Source: Alphaproteobacteria bacterium AO1-B
Lineage (GTDB): Bacteria > Pseudomonadota > Alphaproteobacteria > Rhizobiales > Stappiaceae
Direction of reading: 5' to 3'
Length of the DNA stretch: 64,000 bases
Assembly: GCA_001890945.1 (NCBI GenBank)
Contig: MLAX01000001.1
Span: 186,001-250,000, forward strand
Made by a program: the position numbers and the translations under genes. The notes beneath the pieces are model-generated. The model worked only from the letters and a program-made list of their open reading frames with translations, ran no database searches and had not been told where the DNA came from. Below, piece after piece: positions 12,620 to 19,895 of this stretch. How positions within the stretch are numbered: the stretch's first letter is position 1; every line of letters begins with the position of its first letter.

Positions 12620-14743
12620 ATGTTTGATATTCATCGTGTAGAAGTCGACTGGGGCGGACGTCCGCTCATTCTCGAAACGGGTAAGGTTGCCCGTCAGGCT
12701 GATGGGTCCGTTATGGCGACCTACGGTGAAACCAAGGTCCTAGCGACCGTTGTTTCCGCCAAAGAGCCGCGGGCCGGCCAAGACTTTTTCCCGCTCACCG
12801 TGAACTACCAGGAAAAGGCATTCGCCGCCGGTAAGATCCCGGGTGGCTACTTCAAGCGCGAAGGCCGTCCGTCTGAGCACGAGACCCTCACATCCCGTTT
12901 GATTGACCGCCCGATCCGTCCGCTGTTTGCTGACGGTTACAAGAACGACACCCAGGTCGTGATCACCGTGCTGTCGCACGACATGGAAAACGCACCGGAC
13001 ATCCTGGCCATGGTCGCAGCTTCTGCTGCCCTGACCCTGTCCGGCGTTCCGTTCATGGGCCCGATCGGCGGCGCGCGCGTTGGTTACATCAACGGCGAAT
13101 ACGTTCTGAACCCGCTGGTCGACGACATGCCGGAATCCGCTTTGGACCTGGTTGTCGCAGGAACCTCCGATGCGGTTCTGATGGTTGAGTCCGAAGCCAA
13201 GGAACTCGACGAAGAAACAATGCTCGGTGCGGTCATGTTCGGCCACAAGGGCTTCCAGACTGTCATCGACGCGATCATCAAGCTGGCGGAAGCCGGTGCG
13301 AAAGAGCCGCGCGAATTCGTTGCTGCCGATCATTCCGAACTGTTCGGCAAGGTCAAGGCAATCGCGGCTGACGATCTGACTGCAGCTTACAAGATCACAG
13401 CAAAAACCGAGCGCAAGAACGCGGTTGATGCAGCCAAGGCCAAGGTTGTCGAGGCGCTGATCACCAACGCTGCCGAAGGTGAAGCGGTCGAGGCGAACGT
13501 CCTCGGTGAGCAGTTCAAGAAGCTAGAAGCGGAAATCGTCCGCGGCGGCATCCTGGACACCGGTACCCGCATCGACGGCCGCGATCTCTCCACTGTTCGC
13601 CAGATTTCCTCGGAAGTCGGCATTCTGCCGCGCGCACACGGCTCGTCCCTATTCACCCGCGGTGAAACACAGGGTCTTGTTGTTGCAACCCTCGGCACCG
13701 GTGAAGACGAGCAGTTCATCGATCTTCTGGAAGGCACCGTGAAGTCTCACTTTATGCTGCATTACAACTTCCCGCCGTACTCTGTCGGTGAAACCGGTCG
13801 CATGGGTTCTCCGGGACGCCGCGAAATCGGTCACGGCAAGCTGGCGTGGCGCGCAATCAACCCGATGCTTCCGGCGCATCATGAGTTCCCGTACACCCTG
13901 CGGGTTGTCTCCGAGATCACCGAATCCAACGGGTCGTCCTCAATGGCAACCGTTTGCGGCACATCCCTGTCGCTGATGGATGCCGGCGTGCCGCTGAAGT
14001 CACCGGTTGCCGGTATCGCCATGGGTCTGATCAAGGAAGGCGAACGTTTCGCGGTCCTGTCCGATATCCTGGGCGATGAAGATCACCTTGGCGACATGGA
14101 CTTCAAGGTTGCTGGTTCTGAGAACGGCATCACCGCGCTACAGATGGACATCAAGATCGACGGTATCACCGAAGAGATCATGAAGGTTGCTCTGGAGCAG
14201 GCCAAAGGCGGCCGGATCCACATTCTCGGCGAAATGGCAAATGCCATCACCGAGGCACGCTCCGAGCTTGGTGAGCATGCACCACGCATCGAAATGATGA
14301 AGATCCCGGTCGACAAGATCCGTGAAGTCATCGGTTCGGGCGGCAAGGTCATTCGCGAGATCGTTGAGAAGACCGGCGCGAAGGTCAACATCGAGGACGA
14401 CGGCACCGTCAAGATCGCCTCTTCCGATGGCAAAGCCATCAAGGCGGCTGTCAACTGGATCAACTCCATTGCAGCTGAGCCTGAAGTTGGCGTGATCTAC
14501 GAAGGCACCGTTGTGAAATGCGTTGACTTCGGCGCGTTCGTCAACTTCTTCGGCGCAAAAGACGGCTTGGTACACATCTCCCAGCTGGCTCCGAAGAAAG
14601 TTGCCAAGGTCACCGATGTGGTCAAGGAAGGCGACAAGGTCTGGGTCAAGCTCATGGGCTTCGACGAGCGTGGCAAGGTCCGCCTATCCATGAAGGTTGT
14701 TGACCAGGAAACTGGTCAGGAAATCCCGAAAGACGCCGAATAA
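12620..14743 (+). CDS. pnp: Polyribonucleotide nucleotidyltransferase (PNPase)
   Basis: Phosphorolytic 3'-5' exoribonuclease of the RNA degradosome. The 707-residue product has two RNase PH-like domains (first begins [16 protein letters not shown]; second holds [20 protein letters not shown]), a KH domain with [12 protein letters not shown] and an S1 domain ([19 protein letters not shown]). AAGGA lies 6 bases before ATG 12620; an adjacent ATG at 12617 is also possible. It is separated from rpsO by a terminator and its own leader, so it probably has its own promoter. Confidence 0.97.
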
Positions 14744-14768
14744 GCTTCAAAAGCTTCTTAAATAGAAG

Positions 14769-14800
14769 ACGCAGGTGCCAATCGGTACCTGCGTTTTTTT
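14769..14800 (+). terminator. Intrinsic terminator of pnp
   Basis: An 11-bp stem, ACGCAGGTGCC (14769-14779) and GGTACCTGCGT (14784-14794) with one G-U pair, loop AATC, followed by seven T. Confidence 0.93.
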
Positions 14801-14837
14801 GTGCCCCAAGTGGACAGGTCAACGTGTTTACGTGGGT

Positions 14838-17591
14838 CTAACTGACCTTCAACTGCAGTTCGGTCTTAAACGGTTCTTCGGCCAGGAATTGGAAGAAATC
14901 TTCTCTTGGCATCGGTTTGCCGAAGTAAAAGCCCTGAATCTGACGGCACCCCATGCGCATCAAAATGGTGTTCTGTTTGCGGGTCTCTACGCCCTCACAG
15001 ACCACACTGATCGACAACGCATTTGCCATGGTCACAATGGCACTGACCAGCGCCTGATCGTCCGTGTCTGTCTCAATATCCTTTATGAAGGAGCGGTCGA
15101 TTTTGAGGGTATCGATCGGCAGTCGCTTGAGATAGCTCAAGGACGAGTATCCAGTCCCGAAATCATCAAGTGACAGTTTGATGCCCAGGGTTTTGATAGC
15201 CATCATGATGGCAACCGGATCGATTTGGCTGTCATCAAACATAACGCTCTCAGTGATCTCCAATGTCAGCTGGTCCGGCCGCATGCCCGCGTTGTCGAGA
15301 GTGGATTTCAAGAGGTCAACAAAGCCGTCTTCCCGGCATTGGCGCGGCGATATGTTCACCCCGATACTCTGAAGAGTGTGTCCGCGCGCACGGCAATCTG
15401 AAAAGAATGCGCAGGCCTTTTTCAGAACAAGCTTTCCAAGTGGGACAATCAAGCCCGTTTCTTCAGCGACGGGAATGAACTCTCCCGGCGACACAAAGCC
15501 GAGTTCAGGATCGGTCCATCGCGCGAGGGCTTCGCAACCCGACACAGTACCAGTGGCGCAATTGATTATCGGTTGGATATAGATCTCAATCGCATCATTC
15601 TCGATGGCTTTTCGAAGAGCGGCTTCGAGCATCAGTGCCCGCGTCATTCGATCATTCGTTTGCTTTGAGAAGAACCGGAAAGCATTGCCGCCATCGGTCT
15701 TCGTTTGATGCATGGCGGATTCGGCCTGTTTCAAAAGCGCGATATCTGTAAAGCCGTCCAGCGGAAATACAGAAATGCCGATACTGGCCGTCAAAACCGC
15801 ATCTTGCCCGTTGCCGACATCAATTCTTTTGGAAACAGCGCCTAAGATTCTCTGGGCGACCCTTTCTGTCTCCCAGTCATCTTCGGTGTCAGTCAGGAGC
15901 ACGGCAAACTCATCACCGCCAAGGCGGGATACTGTATTGCTGGGGTCAACGGTTTCCTGAATACGATTTCCAACCTCACGCAGGATCGGATCGCCGAGAT
16001 CATGACCATGGAGATCGTTCACCGTTTTGAATCTGTCCACATCGACAACAAGTACCGCACCGGCCTTTTCTGTCCTGTCTCGGTGGACGAGACTTTGGCG
16101 CAGACGGTCTCTGAACAGACTGCGGTTCGGAAGACCTGTAAGAGCGTCATAGTTTGCATGTTTTTCAATCAGCTCTTCTTGTTCCTTGCGTTCCGTAATG
16201 TCTGTGATCGTGCTGTGAATGGCAGTGACGCCGTTCCAGGTGGTCATGCGAACATGTTGCTCAAGCCAGACCGACTCTCCTGAAGCTGCTCTGCCCAAGA
16301 CTTCATAAACGGCCGGCGCGATGCCACCCTCTTGCCGTATCCGGCGATAGGTTCGCATGCGCTCATGTTCTTCGGGAGCATAGATATCCCATATCGACTG
16401 ACCAATCAGTCTGTCCGCATCACCCGGTTCGTATCCCAGGATTTTGAGTAATGCGTCATTGACGTAAAGGATCTTGGCATCGGAATGGATCACAATCCCC
16501 TGCAGCGATCCGTCAATGAGTTCTCGGAATTGGGCATTCGTCTTTTGAACGGCATCAAAGGCGCTGTCAAAAAGTGTGCCGAGGCGGTTGTATTCTGCAA
16601 TCCGACCGGGTTCGTACTTGGCGCCTGATCCCTTAGCCGCCCGTCCACCTGCGTAATCCACGAGAGCGTTGAGGTTTGCGGCGGTAAACTGATTGATCAG
16701 GAATGCGGCTGAAAACGACGCAATCCCAATGTAGAGGAGAAATGGAAAGAAGATGTCCAGATAGGTGGATTCTATATTTTCGACAATGTCGCTTTTGGAC
16801 TGCGTGATAATCTTTATCGGGTCTGTGCCAGTTTCGCCTAGGAGAACCGTGCTTGATGTCAGTGTGCCGTCATGAAGGCGGAACGCCTGCACGCCGAGCT
16901 CATCAAGTGTGTTCGAGAGTTCTTCGTTATTGGCAAACTTGCCGTATGAGGCCAGCGAAGCAGTCCCAGAGATGATCGCAATATCTCCTGTGCCTAGGAC
17001 ACTTGAGAGGTTGTCGAGAAGCGCGTAAGCATCGTTGAACAGGGATCCACCGACAAGCCGGGCAATGACACGGCCGGTTTCTGGATCCACCACTGGTATG
17101 GAAATGACCGTGAGTTTCGTTGCGGGCTCGGCGCTGCCGTCGCTGTAGAAGCGCCAAACATCTGGTGGCATCGTTCTCAGAGTTTGTCCCGGTAGTACGG
17201 AGCCGACGTCAACAAGGGCAAGACTGGAATTCAGCCATCCCATCTGCCGTTCATGATCGAGTATAAGCACGTCAGGGACGACAGCCGATGCATTTTGGCC
17301 GACGACCTCCATGATCCTTGCAGCCTTCCGGGCATCGTAATCAATAACCGACTGAATGAAATCATCGTTCAGGGCAATCGTACGCAGCTGGCTTTCGATG
17401 TCCTTCAAATAGGACTCGAAAACCAATGTCGTGAGGGACTGTTCGCGCTTTGCATTGCGTTCAGCTTCCAACTCAGCGACGGACAAACTTCCAAGGTAGG
17501 TGATGCCAAAAAGCGCAACAGCAGTTGCCATGAGGCCGACCACAAACAGGCCTCCGACCAACCAGCTGAACTTCACACCTTTTGTCTTCAT
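14838..17591 (-). CDS. LuxQ-like sensor with PAS, GGDEF and EAL output
   Basis: A 917-residue inner-membrane protein. TM1 is about residues 9-32 and TM2 about 277-300, with a periplasmic region of about 245 residues between them. That region contains VDPETGRV and FNDAYALLDNL, which resemble the Vibrio LuxQ periplasmic domain as I recall it (DPSTGEV and DNNFALMEKL). After TM2 come a PAS domain (about 355-465), a GGDEF domain (YDALTGLPNR; GGDEF at 558-562) and an EAL domain (EAL at 687-689, NISPRQ, EITES, DDFGTGYSSL, KIDRSFI). Both catalytic signatures look intact, and there is no RxxD I-site five residues before GGDEF. It starts inside the stop of luxP (ATGA overlap). Inferred role: AI-2-controlled synthesis or breakdown of cyclic-di-GMP. 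Confidence 0.88.
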   Translation of the reverse strand: MKTKGVKFSWLVGGLFVVGLMATAVALFGITYLGSLSVAELEAERNAKREQSLTTLVFESYLKDIESQLRTIALNDDFIQSVIDYDARKAARIMEVVGQNASAVVPDVLILDHERQMGWLNSSLALVDVGSVLPGQTLRTMPPDVWRFYSDGSAEPATKLTVISIPVVDPETGRVIARLVGGSLFNDAYALLDNLSSVLGTGDIAIISGTASLASYGKFANNEELSNTLDELGVQAFRLHDGTLTSSTVLLGETGTDPIKIITQSKSDIVENIESTYLDIFFPFLLYIGIASFSAAFLINQFTAANLNALVDYAGGRAAKGSGAKYEPGRIAEYNRLGTLFDSAFDAVQKTNAQFRELIDGSLQGIVIHSDAKILYVNDALLKILGYEPGDADRLIGQSIWDIYAPEEHERMRTYRRIRQEGGIAPAVYEVLGRAASGESVWLEQHVRMTTWNGVTAIHSTITDITERKEQEELIEKHANYDALTGLPNRSLFRDRLRQSLVHRDRTEKAGAVLVVDVDRFKTVNDLHGHDLGDPILREVGNRIQETVDPSNTVSRLGGDEFAVLLTDTEDDWETERVAQRILGAVSKRIDVGNGQDAVLTASIGISVFPLDGFTDIALLKQAESAMHQTKTDGGNAFRFFSKQTNDRMTRALMLEAALRKAIENDAIEIYIQPIINCATGTVSGCEALARWTDPELGFVSPGEFIPVAEETGLIVPLGKLVLKKACAFFSDCRARGHTLQSIGVNISPRQCREDGFVDLLKSTLDNAGMRPDQLTLEITESVMFDDSQIDPVAIMMAIKTLGIKLSLDDFGTGYSSLSYLKRLPIDTLKIDRSFIKDIETDTDDQALVSAIVTMANALSISVVCEGVETRKQNTILMRMGCRQIQGFYFGKPMPREDFFQFLAEEPFKTELQLKVS

Positions 17592-18733
17592 TTTGAGTAC
17601 CGGAAGGCCCGCGCCTTCAATTCTTGAATATCTCCAGCAGAGTTCTCCTTGGTGACAAGCGCGAACTCACCGGAGAACACCACCGGGATCTGGTCACTGT
17701 TTCCTGTCTGGTCCAAGACAATCGCCTCAGCCATGGCAACACCGTTGTCATCGTTCATCCGCATTACCGTGACATCCAGCTTTCCTTCCAGGATGGCATC
17801 CAGTTCGGCAGCGCCCCCACCCCATCCGTTGGTCATGACGGTTCCCTGGTTGTCACTTGCAGCGATGGCGTCCATGACACCGAGAGCGATGTCAGTTGAG
17901 CACGCATAGATGAACGATAGGTTTTGTTGTTCTTGAAGAATGCTTTCTGTCGCCTGCCGCGATTTTTCCCGGTCATACCCAACGTAGTAGGAGGCCTTGA
18001 GGTTCATGGCTTCCGGATCTGAATAAGCCTGCAAGAAAGTGTTGCCCCGTGCCCGGCTGACGTATCCGCGAGGCCCGAACAGAATTGCAAAGTTCTGTTT
18101 TTGGCCGAGCTTGGTCTTGTAGTAGTCGATGAGAAGCTGGGTACCGGCCACATGATCGAAACCGACGTAAAGAAAGGGCTGCCGTTCTCTCCAAACTTTC
18201 AGTGGCGTCGTAATGTTTTGAAGGATAACTTTAGGTTTTCCTCGGGCAATGAGACGTTGAACGATCGGCTTGTGGCGTAGAACGTCCAGAGTGAAAACCA
18301 GATAATCCGGATTGCTCGCCAGAGCCTGCGTGATCAACGCTGCCTGGCCGCCCGCATCCGATGAGGATCCGGAAAAATAAGATTCGATCCTGTGAGGTAT
18401 ACCAATCTCGTTCATCCGCGCTTCAAACGACGCGAGACTGCGGCGCCAGTAATCTGAAACCTGGCTGCCAGGATAAATGATTGCGATTTTAACCGGATTG
18501 ACTTTGGTTTGCAGTCTGATCGCCGGCGCCGAGACGCGCCGCGCAAAGCCTTCTGCAACAGACCGTTGTTTTTTATTCAGCGCGGTAAATTCGGTGAGCG
18601 ACCAGAATTCGTCCAAACTCGTGTCTTGAGCTGTAGCTGTCGTCAAATATGCAAGGCTCAGAACTACAGAGACTGCCAAAGACGTAAGTAACGATCTTCG
18701 GATGGCTTTGCGCAAAATTTTGAATTGGCCCAT
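17588..18733 (-). CDS. luxP: LuxP-type periplasmic autoinducer-2 binding protein
   Basis: A 381-residue periplasmic sugar-binding-fold protein with a signal peptide (about 1-35, ending TTATAQ). The match to Vibrio LuxP is extensive: YPGSQVSDYW, VILQNITTP, PFLYVGFDH, FIYACSTDIALG, NGWGGGAAELDAI and VTVMRMNDD. Residues known to contact furanosyl-borate AI-2 in Vibrio harveyi LuxP have counterparts here: Q91, S93, W96, N173, R229, T280, D281, W304 and R325. The start is taken at MGQFKILRK, which gives a normal signal peptide; no strong ribosome-binding site is seen, and a TTG at 18811 is less likely. It is translationally coupled to the LuxQ-like GGDEF/EAL gene. A ribose/galactose-type transport protein is the alternative, but no transporter genes adjoin. 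Confidence 0.92.
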   Translation of the reverse strand: MGQFKILRKAIRRSLLTSLAVSVVLSLAYLTTATAQDTSLDEFWSLTEFTALNKKQRSVAEGFARRVSAPAIRLQTKVNPVKIAIIYPGSQVSDYWRRSLASFEARMNEIGIPHRIESYFSGSSSDAGGQAALITQALASNPDYLVFTLDVLRHKPIVQRLIARGKPKVILQNITTPLKVWRERQPFLYVGFDHVAGTQLLIDYYKTKLGQKQNFAILFGPRGYVSRARGNTFLQAYSDPEAMNLKASYYVGYDREKSRQATESILQEQQNLSFIYACSTDIALGVMDAIAASDNQGTVMTNGWGGGAAELDAILEGKLDVTVMRMNDDNGVAMAEAIVLDQTGNSDQIPVVFSGEFALVTKENSAGDIQELKARAFRYSK

Positions 18734-19082
18734 AACAAAACCACTCGACAGAAATACTGAGCGGAAACAACTGGCATTCATTGTGATTGTGGTTTTATAT
18801 GATGCAATCAAAAAAGACGCTTTTTGTTGTTGTGTCTGATCACTTTATCGAAACGCTATTATAAGAGGTCAAACAAATACTTAATTAAACGAATTATTGT
18901 TTGTTTTTTATCATGTCAATTTCGGCCATTCTGCAATCGATCAGTTAATATCGGTTGGGCCTAACTTCTGTCCCAAGTTACGGACCAGACATTGAAGCGC
19001 CCGTGTTTGTTGCGTTCGCATCAGACATTTGCCTGCAGTTACGAACCTGCTATACCGCTGCCAACTTTGAAGGGAACAAGGT
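18734..19082. promoter_or_regulatory. A+T-rich divergent intergenic region between luxP and dapB
   Basis: These 349 bases hold no gene. The part from 18780 to 18930 is much richer in A+T than its surroundings, with runs such as AAAAAAG and TTGTTTGTTTTTT. Promoters for luxP (leftward) and dapB (rightward) should lie here. No specific operator stood out. Confidence 0.5.
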
Positions 19083-19895
19083 ATGGGTTCAATGCGCTTG
19101 GTCGTGGTTGGTGCAGGTGGCCGGATGGGGCGGGCCTTGACCCGGGCCGTCACAGATGCTGCGGGAGCAGACGTGGTTGCGGCCATTGAGCAAGAGGGAT
19201 CGCCTTTCCTAGGTCAGGATGTGGGTGAGCTTGCCGGCGTTGGCGCTTTGAATGTCCATGTGACCGATGATCCGTTGTCTGCATTTGCGAAAGCCGACGG
19301 GGTCTTGGATTTTACAGCGCCAAAAGCGAGCATTTGGTTTGCTGAGTTGGCGGCCCAGGCGCGGATCGTTCATGTGATCGGAACGACTGGTTGGACGCCG
19401 GAGGAGGAAACACCTCTTCGCGCCGCTGCAAGGCACGCACGGATTATCAAATCCGGCAACATGAGCCTCGGCGTCAACTTGCTGGCGAGCCTTGTGCGCA
19501 AGGCAGCAGCGGCGTTGGATGCAGACTTTGATATCGAAGTTCTGGAAATGCATCACAAACACAAGGTCGATGCGCCGTCCGGCACCGCTTTGCTTCTCGG
19601 CGAAGCTGCCGCAGAAGGCCGCGGGATCGATCTCCAGACCCATTCAGTTCGAAGCCGTGACGGTATTATGGACCCGCGAAAGACCGGCGATATCGGTTTT
19701 GCGACCCTTCGGGGCGGATCCGTCATAGGAGAGCACTCCGTGATTTTCGCCGGTGAAGGCGAGCGGATTGAGCTGACGCACCGCGCCGAAGACCGGCAGC
19801 TGTTCGCACGCGGCGCGGTCAAGGCGGCCCTGTGGGGCTTCGACCAGAAACCCGGATTTTATTCCATGGCCGACGTCCTCGGCCTGGACACCTGA
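19083..19895 (+). CDS. dapB: 4-hydroxy-tetrahydrodipicolinate reductase
   Basis: NAD(P)H-dependent step of lysine and diaminopimelate synthesis. The 270-residue protein has the nucleotide-binding [28 protein letters not shown] and SGNMSLGVN, and the signature [16 protein letters not shown] that holds the substrate-binding His and Lys. GAAGGG lies before ATG 19083. Another in-frame ATG three codons on is possible. gpmA follows after 33 bases. Confidence 0.96.

What the first reader, a model, noticed from the sequence alone, without database searches (positions are those of the whole stretch)
14838..18733. LuxP-type AI-2 receptor coupled to a LuxQ-like sensor with GGDEF-EAL output
The leftward operon encodes a protein carrying every AI-2 contact residue that I recall from Vibrio harveyi LuxP (Q91, S93, W96, N173, R229, T280, D281, W304, R325). 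It overlaps, by ATGA, a membrane protein whose periplasmic part has LuxQ-like segments (VDPETGRV, FNDAYALLDNL). The output is not kinase/receiver but PAS-GGDEF-EAL with intact signatures. LuxPQ is classically a Vibrio phosphorelay, so in an alphaproteobacterium this suggests quorum-signal input turned directly into cyclic-di-GMP in one step, bypassing LuxU/LuxO. It may be an undescribed sensing architecture.
Basis: partly seen in the sequence, partly recalled or inferred. Interest (0 to 1): 0.93.

Follow-up and report, generated by a model that had tools for sequence, protein, structure and literature searches.

The report
LuxP–LuxQ-like receptor wired to cyclic-di-GMP
A marine Roseibium-like bacterium in whose genome no gene for making the bacterial signal AI-2 (luxS) was found carries, as two overlapping genes, a LuxP-type receptor with the nine AI-2 pocket residues and a predicted membrane sensor with a LuxQ-type domain joined to cyclic-di-GMP enzyme domains, so it would likely eavesdrop on other bacteria and turn what it hears directly into a change of cyclic-di-GMP.

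The parts
17588..18733 (-). LuxP-type receptor gene, 381 aa
   Evidence: E about 4e-88 to V. harveyi LuxP chains; Peripla_BP_4
18632..18694 (-). hydrophobic N-terminal stretch of LuxP (residues 14-34), likely signal peptide
   Evidence: hydropathy scan; secretion inferred
17759..18463 (-). span holding the nine pocket residues Q91 S93 W96 N173 R229 T280 D281 W304 R325
   Evidence: seven of the nine checked in PMC9687752
17588..17591 (-). ATGA stop/start overlap of luxP and the sensor gene
   Evidence: the same 4-base overlap in 20 of 20 sensor-adjacent luxP loci of the family, the window's own included (coordinates, first-start ORFs)
14838..17591 (-). sensor gene, 917 aa: TM - LuxQ-periplasm - TM - PAS - GGDEF - EAL
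   Evidence: Pfam; TM by hydropathy
17475..17576 (-). first predicted transmembrane stretch, residues 6-39
   Evidence: hydropathy
16893..17474 (-). LuxQ-periplasm domain, residues 40-233 (modelled part 34-288)
17031..17096 (-). segment residues 166-187 (P..GRV..L.GG..FND) that separates A-type sensors from the LuxP-less paralogue B
   Evidence: N186 in 37 of 37 A-type rows, 1 of 18 B-type; P166 37 of 37 against 4 of 18
16686..16760 (-). second predicted transmembrane stretch, residues 278-302
   Evidence: hydropathy
16191..16499 (-). PAS domain, residues 365-467
15684..16157 (-). GGDEF domain, residues 479-636, GGDEF motif at residues 558-562; no RxxD seen at the usual I-site (position recalled)
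14913..15623 (-). EAL domain, residues 657-893, with the E, N, E, D, D, K, E, Q set (catalytic roles recalled)

Best explanation
The two genes encode a LuxP-type receptor, predicted to be periplasmic, and a predicted membrane sensor with a LuxQ-type domain and PAS-GGDEF-EAL output, which together would likely bind AI-2 made by other species and convert its presence directly into a change of cyclic-di-GMP. Predicted steps: AI-2, probably its borate form because both arginines of the pocket are kept, binds LuxP; LuxP sits on the LuxQ-like domain and changes the arrangement of the sensor dimer; the change passes through the membrane and the PAS domain to the GGDEF and EAL domains. The EAL phosphodiesterase is my bet for the main regulated activity, because its signature residues are also intact in two relatives whose GGDEF is degenerate; the direction of the AI-2 effect is open. 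With no luxS found, the cell would be a listener only. Shown by sequence or model: gene pair, overlap, domains, pocket residues, modelled fold, no luxS match. Inferred: secretion, AI-2 binding, complex formation, enzyme activity, response.
Against: No binding, complex or activity data. The sensor domain is only 14-17% identical to LuxQ in the structural alignments. In 2 Roseibium genomes the A-type sensor stands without luxP (L122, L124), so LuxP is not always kept. The periplasmic part did not evolve faster, relative to the output part, in sensors without luxP (ratio 2.02) than with it (2.35); per branch it was if anything slower (p 0.035), so no loss-of-constraint signal for LuxP contact was found. 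Outside Stappiaceae the residues at 186 and 166 are N and P in only about two thirds of 62 partners. One LuxP of the family (L134, same as L101) has lost the asparagine and both arginines of the pocket although its sensor stays.
Confidence: 0.72

Rival explanations
1. Same machine, other ligand: the LuxP-like protein binds a different sugar or diol, and the sensor reports on a nutrient rather than on AI-2.
For: LuxP is related to ribose-binding proteins; PMC524169 (passages) left open whether non-Vibrio homologues bind AI-2; a family member has lost N and both R of the pocket while keeping the pair (L134); LuxP-like proteins at about 30% identity keep most of the nine residues, so the pocket letters alone separate the kinds by little more than Q91 and D281.
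Against: All nine pocket residues kept, also in distant bacteria, whereas the 7 of 7 LuxP-like proteins at about 30% identity elsewhere in the family differ at both Q91 and D281. PMC12268683 (passages) reports that 3 randomly selected LuxP-type proteins showed AI-2 binding.
Confidence: 0.14
2. LuxP and the sensor are neighbours but LuxP is not the sensor's input; the LuxQ-like (Cache-clan) domain or the PAS domain senses its own ligand.
For: LuxP-less paralogues and two LuxP-less A-type sensors exist with mostly intact signature residues (one of 18, L116, is frameshifted); no rate signal.
Against: Overlap kept in 20 of 20; the luxP-sensor pairing holds across three phyla with different outputs; A-type rows keep N186 and P166 in 37 of 37 (2 of these lack luxP, 17 were not checked for it), the LuxP-less paralogue in 1 and 4 of 18.
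Confidence: 0.09
3. The output is not a net c-di-GMP enzyme but a c-di-GMP receptor or scaffold regulated by AI-2.
For: GGDEF-EAL proteins can be catalytically silent (general knowledge); two gammaproteobacterial relatives have a degenerate GGDEF.
Against: The GGDEF and EAL signature residues are intact in the window, and 25 of 27 positions examined do not vary in 18 of 18 paired Stappiaceae sensors.
Confidence: 0.05

Closest known systems
Vibrio LuxPQ
   Same: LuxP with the AI-2 pocket; LuxQ-type periplasmic domain; adjacent genes in the same order (Vibrio loci); predicted same fold
   Different: Output is PAS-GGDEF-EAL, no histidine kinase or receiver found; no luxS found in the genome
NspS-MbaA of Vibrio cholerae and Sinorhizobium meliloti
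   Same: Periplasmic binding protein controlling a GGDEF-EAL membrane enzyme, including in an alphaproteobacterium (PMC8967002 passages; PMC9993111 search listing with start of abstract)
   Different: Ligand there is a polyamine; here the binding protein is LuxP-type and the sensor domain LuxQ-type
[not shown]
   Same: AI-2 read out directly as c-di-GMP synthesis (PMC8846402 passages; PMC12268683 passages)
   Different: AI-2 binds the enzyme's own sensor domain; no LuxP, no LuxQ-type domain
LuxP homologues with PAS regulators in Oceanospirillales
   Same: LuxP next to a PAS-containing partner outside Vibrio (PMC2561040 passages)
   Different: In the passages seen, the two cited genera were described as having PAS-containing regulators; the Marinomonas MED121 partner matches a kinase here (L022)
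LuxQ-periplasm with a c-di-GMP domain, one case in a 2016 census
   Same: Same domain combination counted: 115 proteins, 112 kinases, 1 c-di-GMP enzyme (PMC4822843 Table 1)
   Different: Count only; no organism, LuxP partner or function in the passages seen

Membership tests
LuxP | Full-length homology to Vibrio LuxP above other sugar-binding proteins | tested here: met
   E 4e-88 over residues 40-380 against 5e-15 for the next kind
LuxP | AI-2 pocket residues of 1JX6 | tested here: met
   nine of nine; seven of the nine confirmed as contacts in passages of PMC9687752
LuxP | Binds AI-2 (borate form) | not testable with these tools
   needs protein
LuxQ hybrid sensor kinase | LuxQ-type periplasmic domain | tested here: met
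   [not shown]
LuxQ hybrid sensor kinase | HisKA, HATPase and receiver domains | tested here: not met
   none among the Pfam matches at E 0.001; NCBIfam LuxQ_Vibrio 91 bits against a cut-off of 1200, best stretch residues 17-387
LuxS/LuxPQ/LuxU/LuxO quorum circuit | luxS in the same genome | tested here: not met
   no match in a 99.99% complete genome; 5 of 14 control genomes ring
LuxS/LuxPQ/LuxU/LuxO quorum circuit | LuxU and LuxO | not tested
   no search made
Bifunctional GGDEF-EAL enzyme | GGDEF and EAL domains with signature residues | tested here: met
Bifunctional GGDEF-EAL enzyme | Measured cyclase and phosphodiesterase activity | not testable with these tools
   needs protein
dCACHE AI-2 receptor (CahR) | dCache_1 sensor domain | tested here: not met
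   no dCache_1 match at E 0.001 in the window's sensor
NspS-MbaA | Polyamine-type periplasmic binding protein | tested here: not met
   the binding protein here is Peripla_BP_4 and LuxP-like

The most novel reading that the evidence does not exclude
LuxP plus a LuxQ-type periplasmic domain is a portable AI-2 receptor cassette spread over three phyla, plugged into kinases, a SpoIIE-type phosphatase or GGDEF-EAL enzymes; luxS-less marine alphaproteobacteria use it to eavesdrop on AI-2 and to set c-di-GMP in one step, and in Roseibium a tandem duplicate of the sensor was freed from LuxP and took on a new input.
Probability: 0.55. Interest if true: 0.8.

Novelty: new variant of a known kind. Interest (0 to 1): 0.64.

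Why it matters
AI-2 is called a universal signal, yet LuxP reception has been treated as a Vibrio phosphorelay or, in a recent survey, as a protein with a sensor domain only, for transport (PMC12268683, passages). If true, LuxP is the input of a swappable receptor module, and marine bacteria that cannot make AI-2 by LuxS read it straight into the second messenger that governs attachment and motility. It gives a directly testable pair, natural LuxP-less paralogues, and a family member with a broken pocket as controls.

Tried and rejected
1. Loss of constraint after loss of luxP: branch lengths of the periplasmic and output parts on a fixed tree gave a ratio of 2.02 without luxP and 2.35 with it; per branch the LuxP-less ones were lower (p 0.035). 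No acceleration. The test mixed two paralogues, recognised only later.

2. My first reading of 18 LuxP-less Roseibium sensors as simple luxP deletions was wrong for most. G053 has both sensors in the order dapB, sensor B, luxP, sensor A, and B groups with 15 LuxP-less sensors (support 100), so these are a paralogue; the luxP-A pair is absent there as a unit. Two (L122, L124) are A-type sensors without luxP. L112 and L163 lie on the B side less firmly (83). The conserved-column result was recounted accordingly.

3. One origin of GGDEF-EAL coupling: the LuxP tree separates Stappiaceae from the gammaproteobacterial cases, but the test of one clade is borderline (p 0.0476), and the starred branches of the periplasmic-domain tree do not rule out one origin. 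Two origins are probable, not shown.

4. Remnants of luxP in the 18 LuxP-less loci: none by tblastn at E 1.

5. Promoter and terminator scan of 14700-19200: fewer sites than the mean of the shuffles; nothing usable.

6. Candidate luxPs elsewhere in the genus (L102-L105) are 31-33% identical with a changed pocket; in the two loci read more widely (L139, L140) they stand beside ABC-transporter-like genes, recognised by eye from translations. Not counted as LuxP.

7. The published contacts of LuxP with LuxQ could not be compared: PMC3468944 is not held. The role of segment 166-187 as a LuxP contact is a prediction.

8. Print status: that this pairing is not described rests on searches of an open-licence library, seen as listings plus passages of 15 papers; most subscription papers are not covered.
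Full report
What is there. The window lies in a 5.23-Mb, 99.99% complete genome whose closest named relatives are Labrenzia/Roseibium. Two leftward genes sit between dapB (starts 19083) and pnp (ends 14743); the names dapB and pnp are read by eye from the translations. luxP-like, 17588-18733, overlaps by ATGA the sensor gene, 14838-17591.

LuxP. The protein matches V. harveyi LuxP over residues 40-380 at E about 4e-88; the next kind, a sugar-binding protein, is at 5e-15. Seven of them are confirmed as AI-2 contacts of 1JX6 in passages of PMC9687752. The same nine letters occur in 77 of 80 named loci, 18 of 20 sensor-adjacent luxPs of the family and 113 of 120 database proteins (overlapping sets, all collected by similarity to LuxP). 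Two controls: of 20 other Peripla_BP_4 stretches taken from the genome (22 listed), 5 could be aligned and keep 0-3 of 9, and 15 gave no profile match and were not scored; 7 of 7 LuxP-like proteins at about 30% identity elsewhere in the family differ at Q91 and D281 but keep most of the other seven.

No sender found. luxS gave no match in the own genome or in the 87 family genomes searched, the own included, while 5 of 14 control genomes ring. SAH hydrolase, the alternative route, is present in the own genome. Of the genomes behind the 80 named loci, 78 were held; luxS is in 13 of 48 (one of them a partial match) and 24 of 30. By record title I count 28 alphaproteobacterial genomes among the 78; none gave a match. 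Several are MAGs and may be incomplete, and some are the same genomes as in the family search.

Distribution and partners. A scan of the genome collection (84,980 species) found 273 LuxP relatives, of which the best 80 were kept. 75 of 80 have a same-strand ORF of 250 aa or more just downstream; 74 of these align as sensors and one (L039) is a mutase. Of the other five, three are cut by the contig end (L014, L035, L069) and two (L058, L073) have no such ORF. I scanned 50 of the 75 with Pfam: 49 carry LuxQ-periplasm over its cut-off; the other is the mutase. Outputs of the 50: 33 histidine kinases, 10 GGDEF-EAL, 1 SpoIIE (L031), 5 that end in or after the PAS region (one, L052, in a draft genome), 1 mutase. 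The remaining 25 were sorted by motif only. GGDEF-EAL falls into Stappiaceae and into gammaproteobacteria (Oceanisphaera, Zobellella, Marinobacterium, Halomonas, Oceanospirillum). In the LuxP tree the Stappiaceae sit in a group with kinase-linked alphaproteobacterial LuxPs, which suggests an exchange of output, but one origin is only marginally rejected (p 0.0476).

History within the family. LuxQ-periplasm matches in 38 of 87 family genomes (36 over the cut-off): 24 of 45 of the window's genus, 14 of 14 of a second genus (taken as Stappia from the matching named loci) and 0 of 28 others. luxP stands directly before the sensor in 20 genomes (6 and 14), with a 4-base overlap in all 20. In the other 18 sensor-positive genomes of the window's genus no luxP was found within the 10 kb fetched; dapB-type and pnp-type motifs flank 17 of these 18, and the 18th shows the dapB motif. 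A profile search raised the sensor-positive genomes of the genus to 25 of 45 and showed two copies in G053: sensor B, luxP, sensor A in a row. B groups with 15 of the LuxP-less sensors (support 100), so these are a paralogue that does not go with LuxP; L112 and L163 lie on the same side (83); L122 and L124 are A-type sensors without luxP. N186 is kept in 37 of 37 A-type rows and 1 of 18 B-type rows, P166 in 37 and 4; the A set holds L122, L124 and 17 database proteins whose LuxP neighbour was not checked, and outside Stappiaceae N and P stand there in only about two thirds of 62 partners. The segment 166-187 is the best candidate for LuxP docking, as a prediction. A rate test gave no support for relaxed evolution without luxP.

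Known work. LuxP outside Vibrio was noted in 2008 (PMC2561040), 2024 (PMC11069264) and 2025 (PMC12268683), passages only; the last describes LuxP proteins as having only the sensor domain and as used for transport, and reports that 3 randomly selected LuxP-type proteins showed AI-2 binding. Direct AI-2-to-c-di-GMP sensing is known with a dCACHE cyclase (PMC8846402, passages), and through a two-component system in V. furnissii (PMC11796354, passages). NspS-MbaA is the model for a binding protein that steers a GGDEF-EAL enzyme (PMC8967002, passages). A 2016 table counts one LuxQ-periplasm protein with a c-di-GMP domain (PMC4822843). In searches (listings) and the passages read I found no description of LuxP paired with a GGDEF-EAL sensor.

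Verdict. The architecture is real and conserved, most likely an AI-2 listening device with c-di-GMP output. It is a new variant of LuxPQ-type sensing rather than a new kind, and its function is untested.

Noticed in passing
L041:7239-9080, L053:2943-4709, L026:2633-4228, L063:2646-4319: In Oceanimonas and Oceanisphaera the luxP partner has LuxQ-periplasm and PAS but the ORF ends without any output domain, although Oceanisphaera arctica (L027) has GGDEF-EAL there.
   Followed up: partly
L134:1782-2945 (G077): A Stappia-type LuxP that keeps the gene pair but has lost the pocket asparagine and both arginines: a possible change of ligand. The genome is 89% complete with 7% contamination.
   Followed up: partly
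L162:3264-6001 with L127 (G053): Tandem sensors around luxP: LuxP-less paralogue B, luxP, LuxP-paired sensor A, downstream of dapB.
   Followed up: yes
L031:8251-10488: Desulfococcaceae luxP partner with LuxQ-periplasm, PAS and a SpoIIE-type phosphatase output.
   Followed up: partly
L102-L108 (wider stretches L139-L141): LuxP-like binding proteins (about 30% identity) with most pocket residues kept; L139 and L140 show them beside ABC-transporter-like genes; possible importers of AI-2 or a related sugar.
   Followed up: partly
L037, L050, L067, L079: LuxP with a LuxQ-periplasm kinase in Arcobacter-type Campylobacterota, with luxS in each of the four genomes.
   Followed up: no
L039, L058, L073: luxP genes without a sensor gene directly downstream, two of them in MAGs labelled Methylocystaceae.
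   Followed up: no
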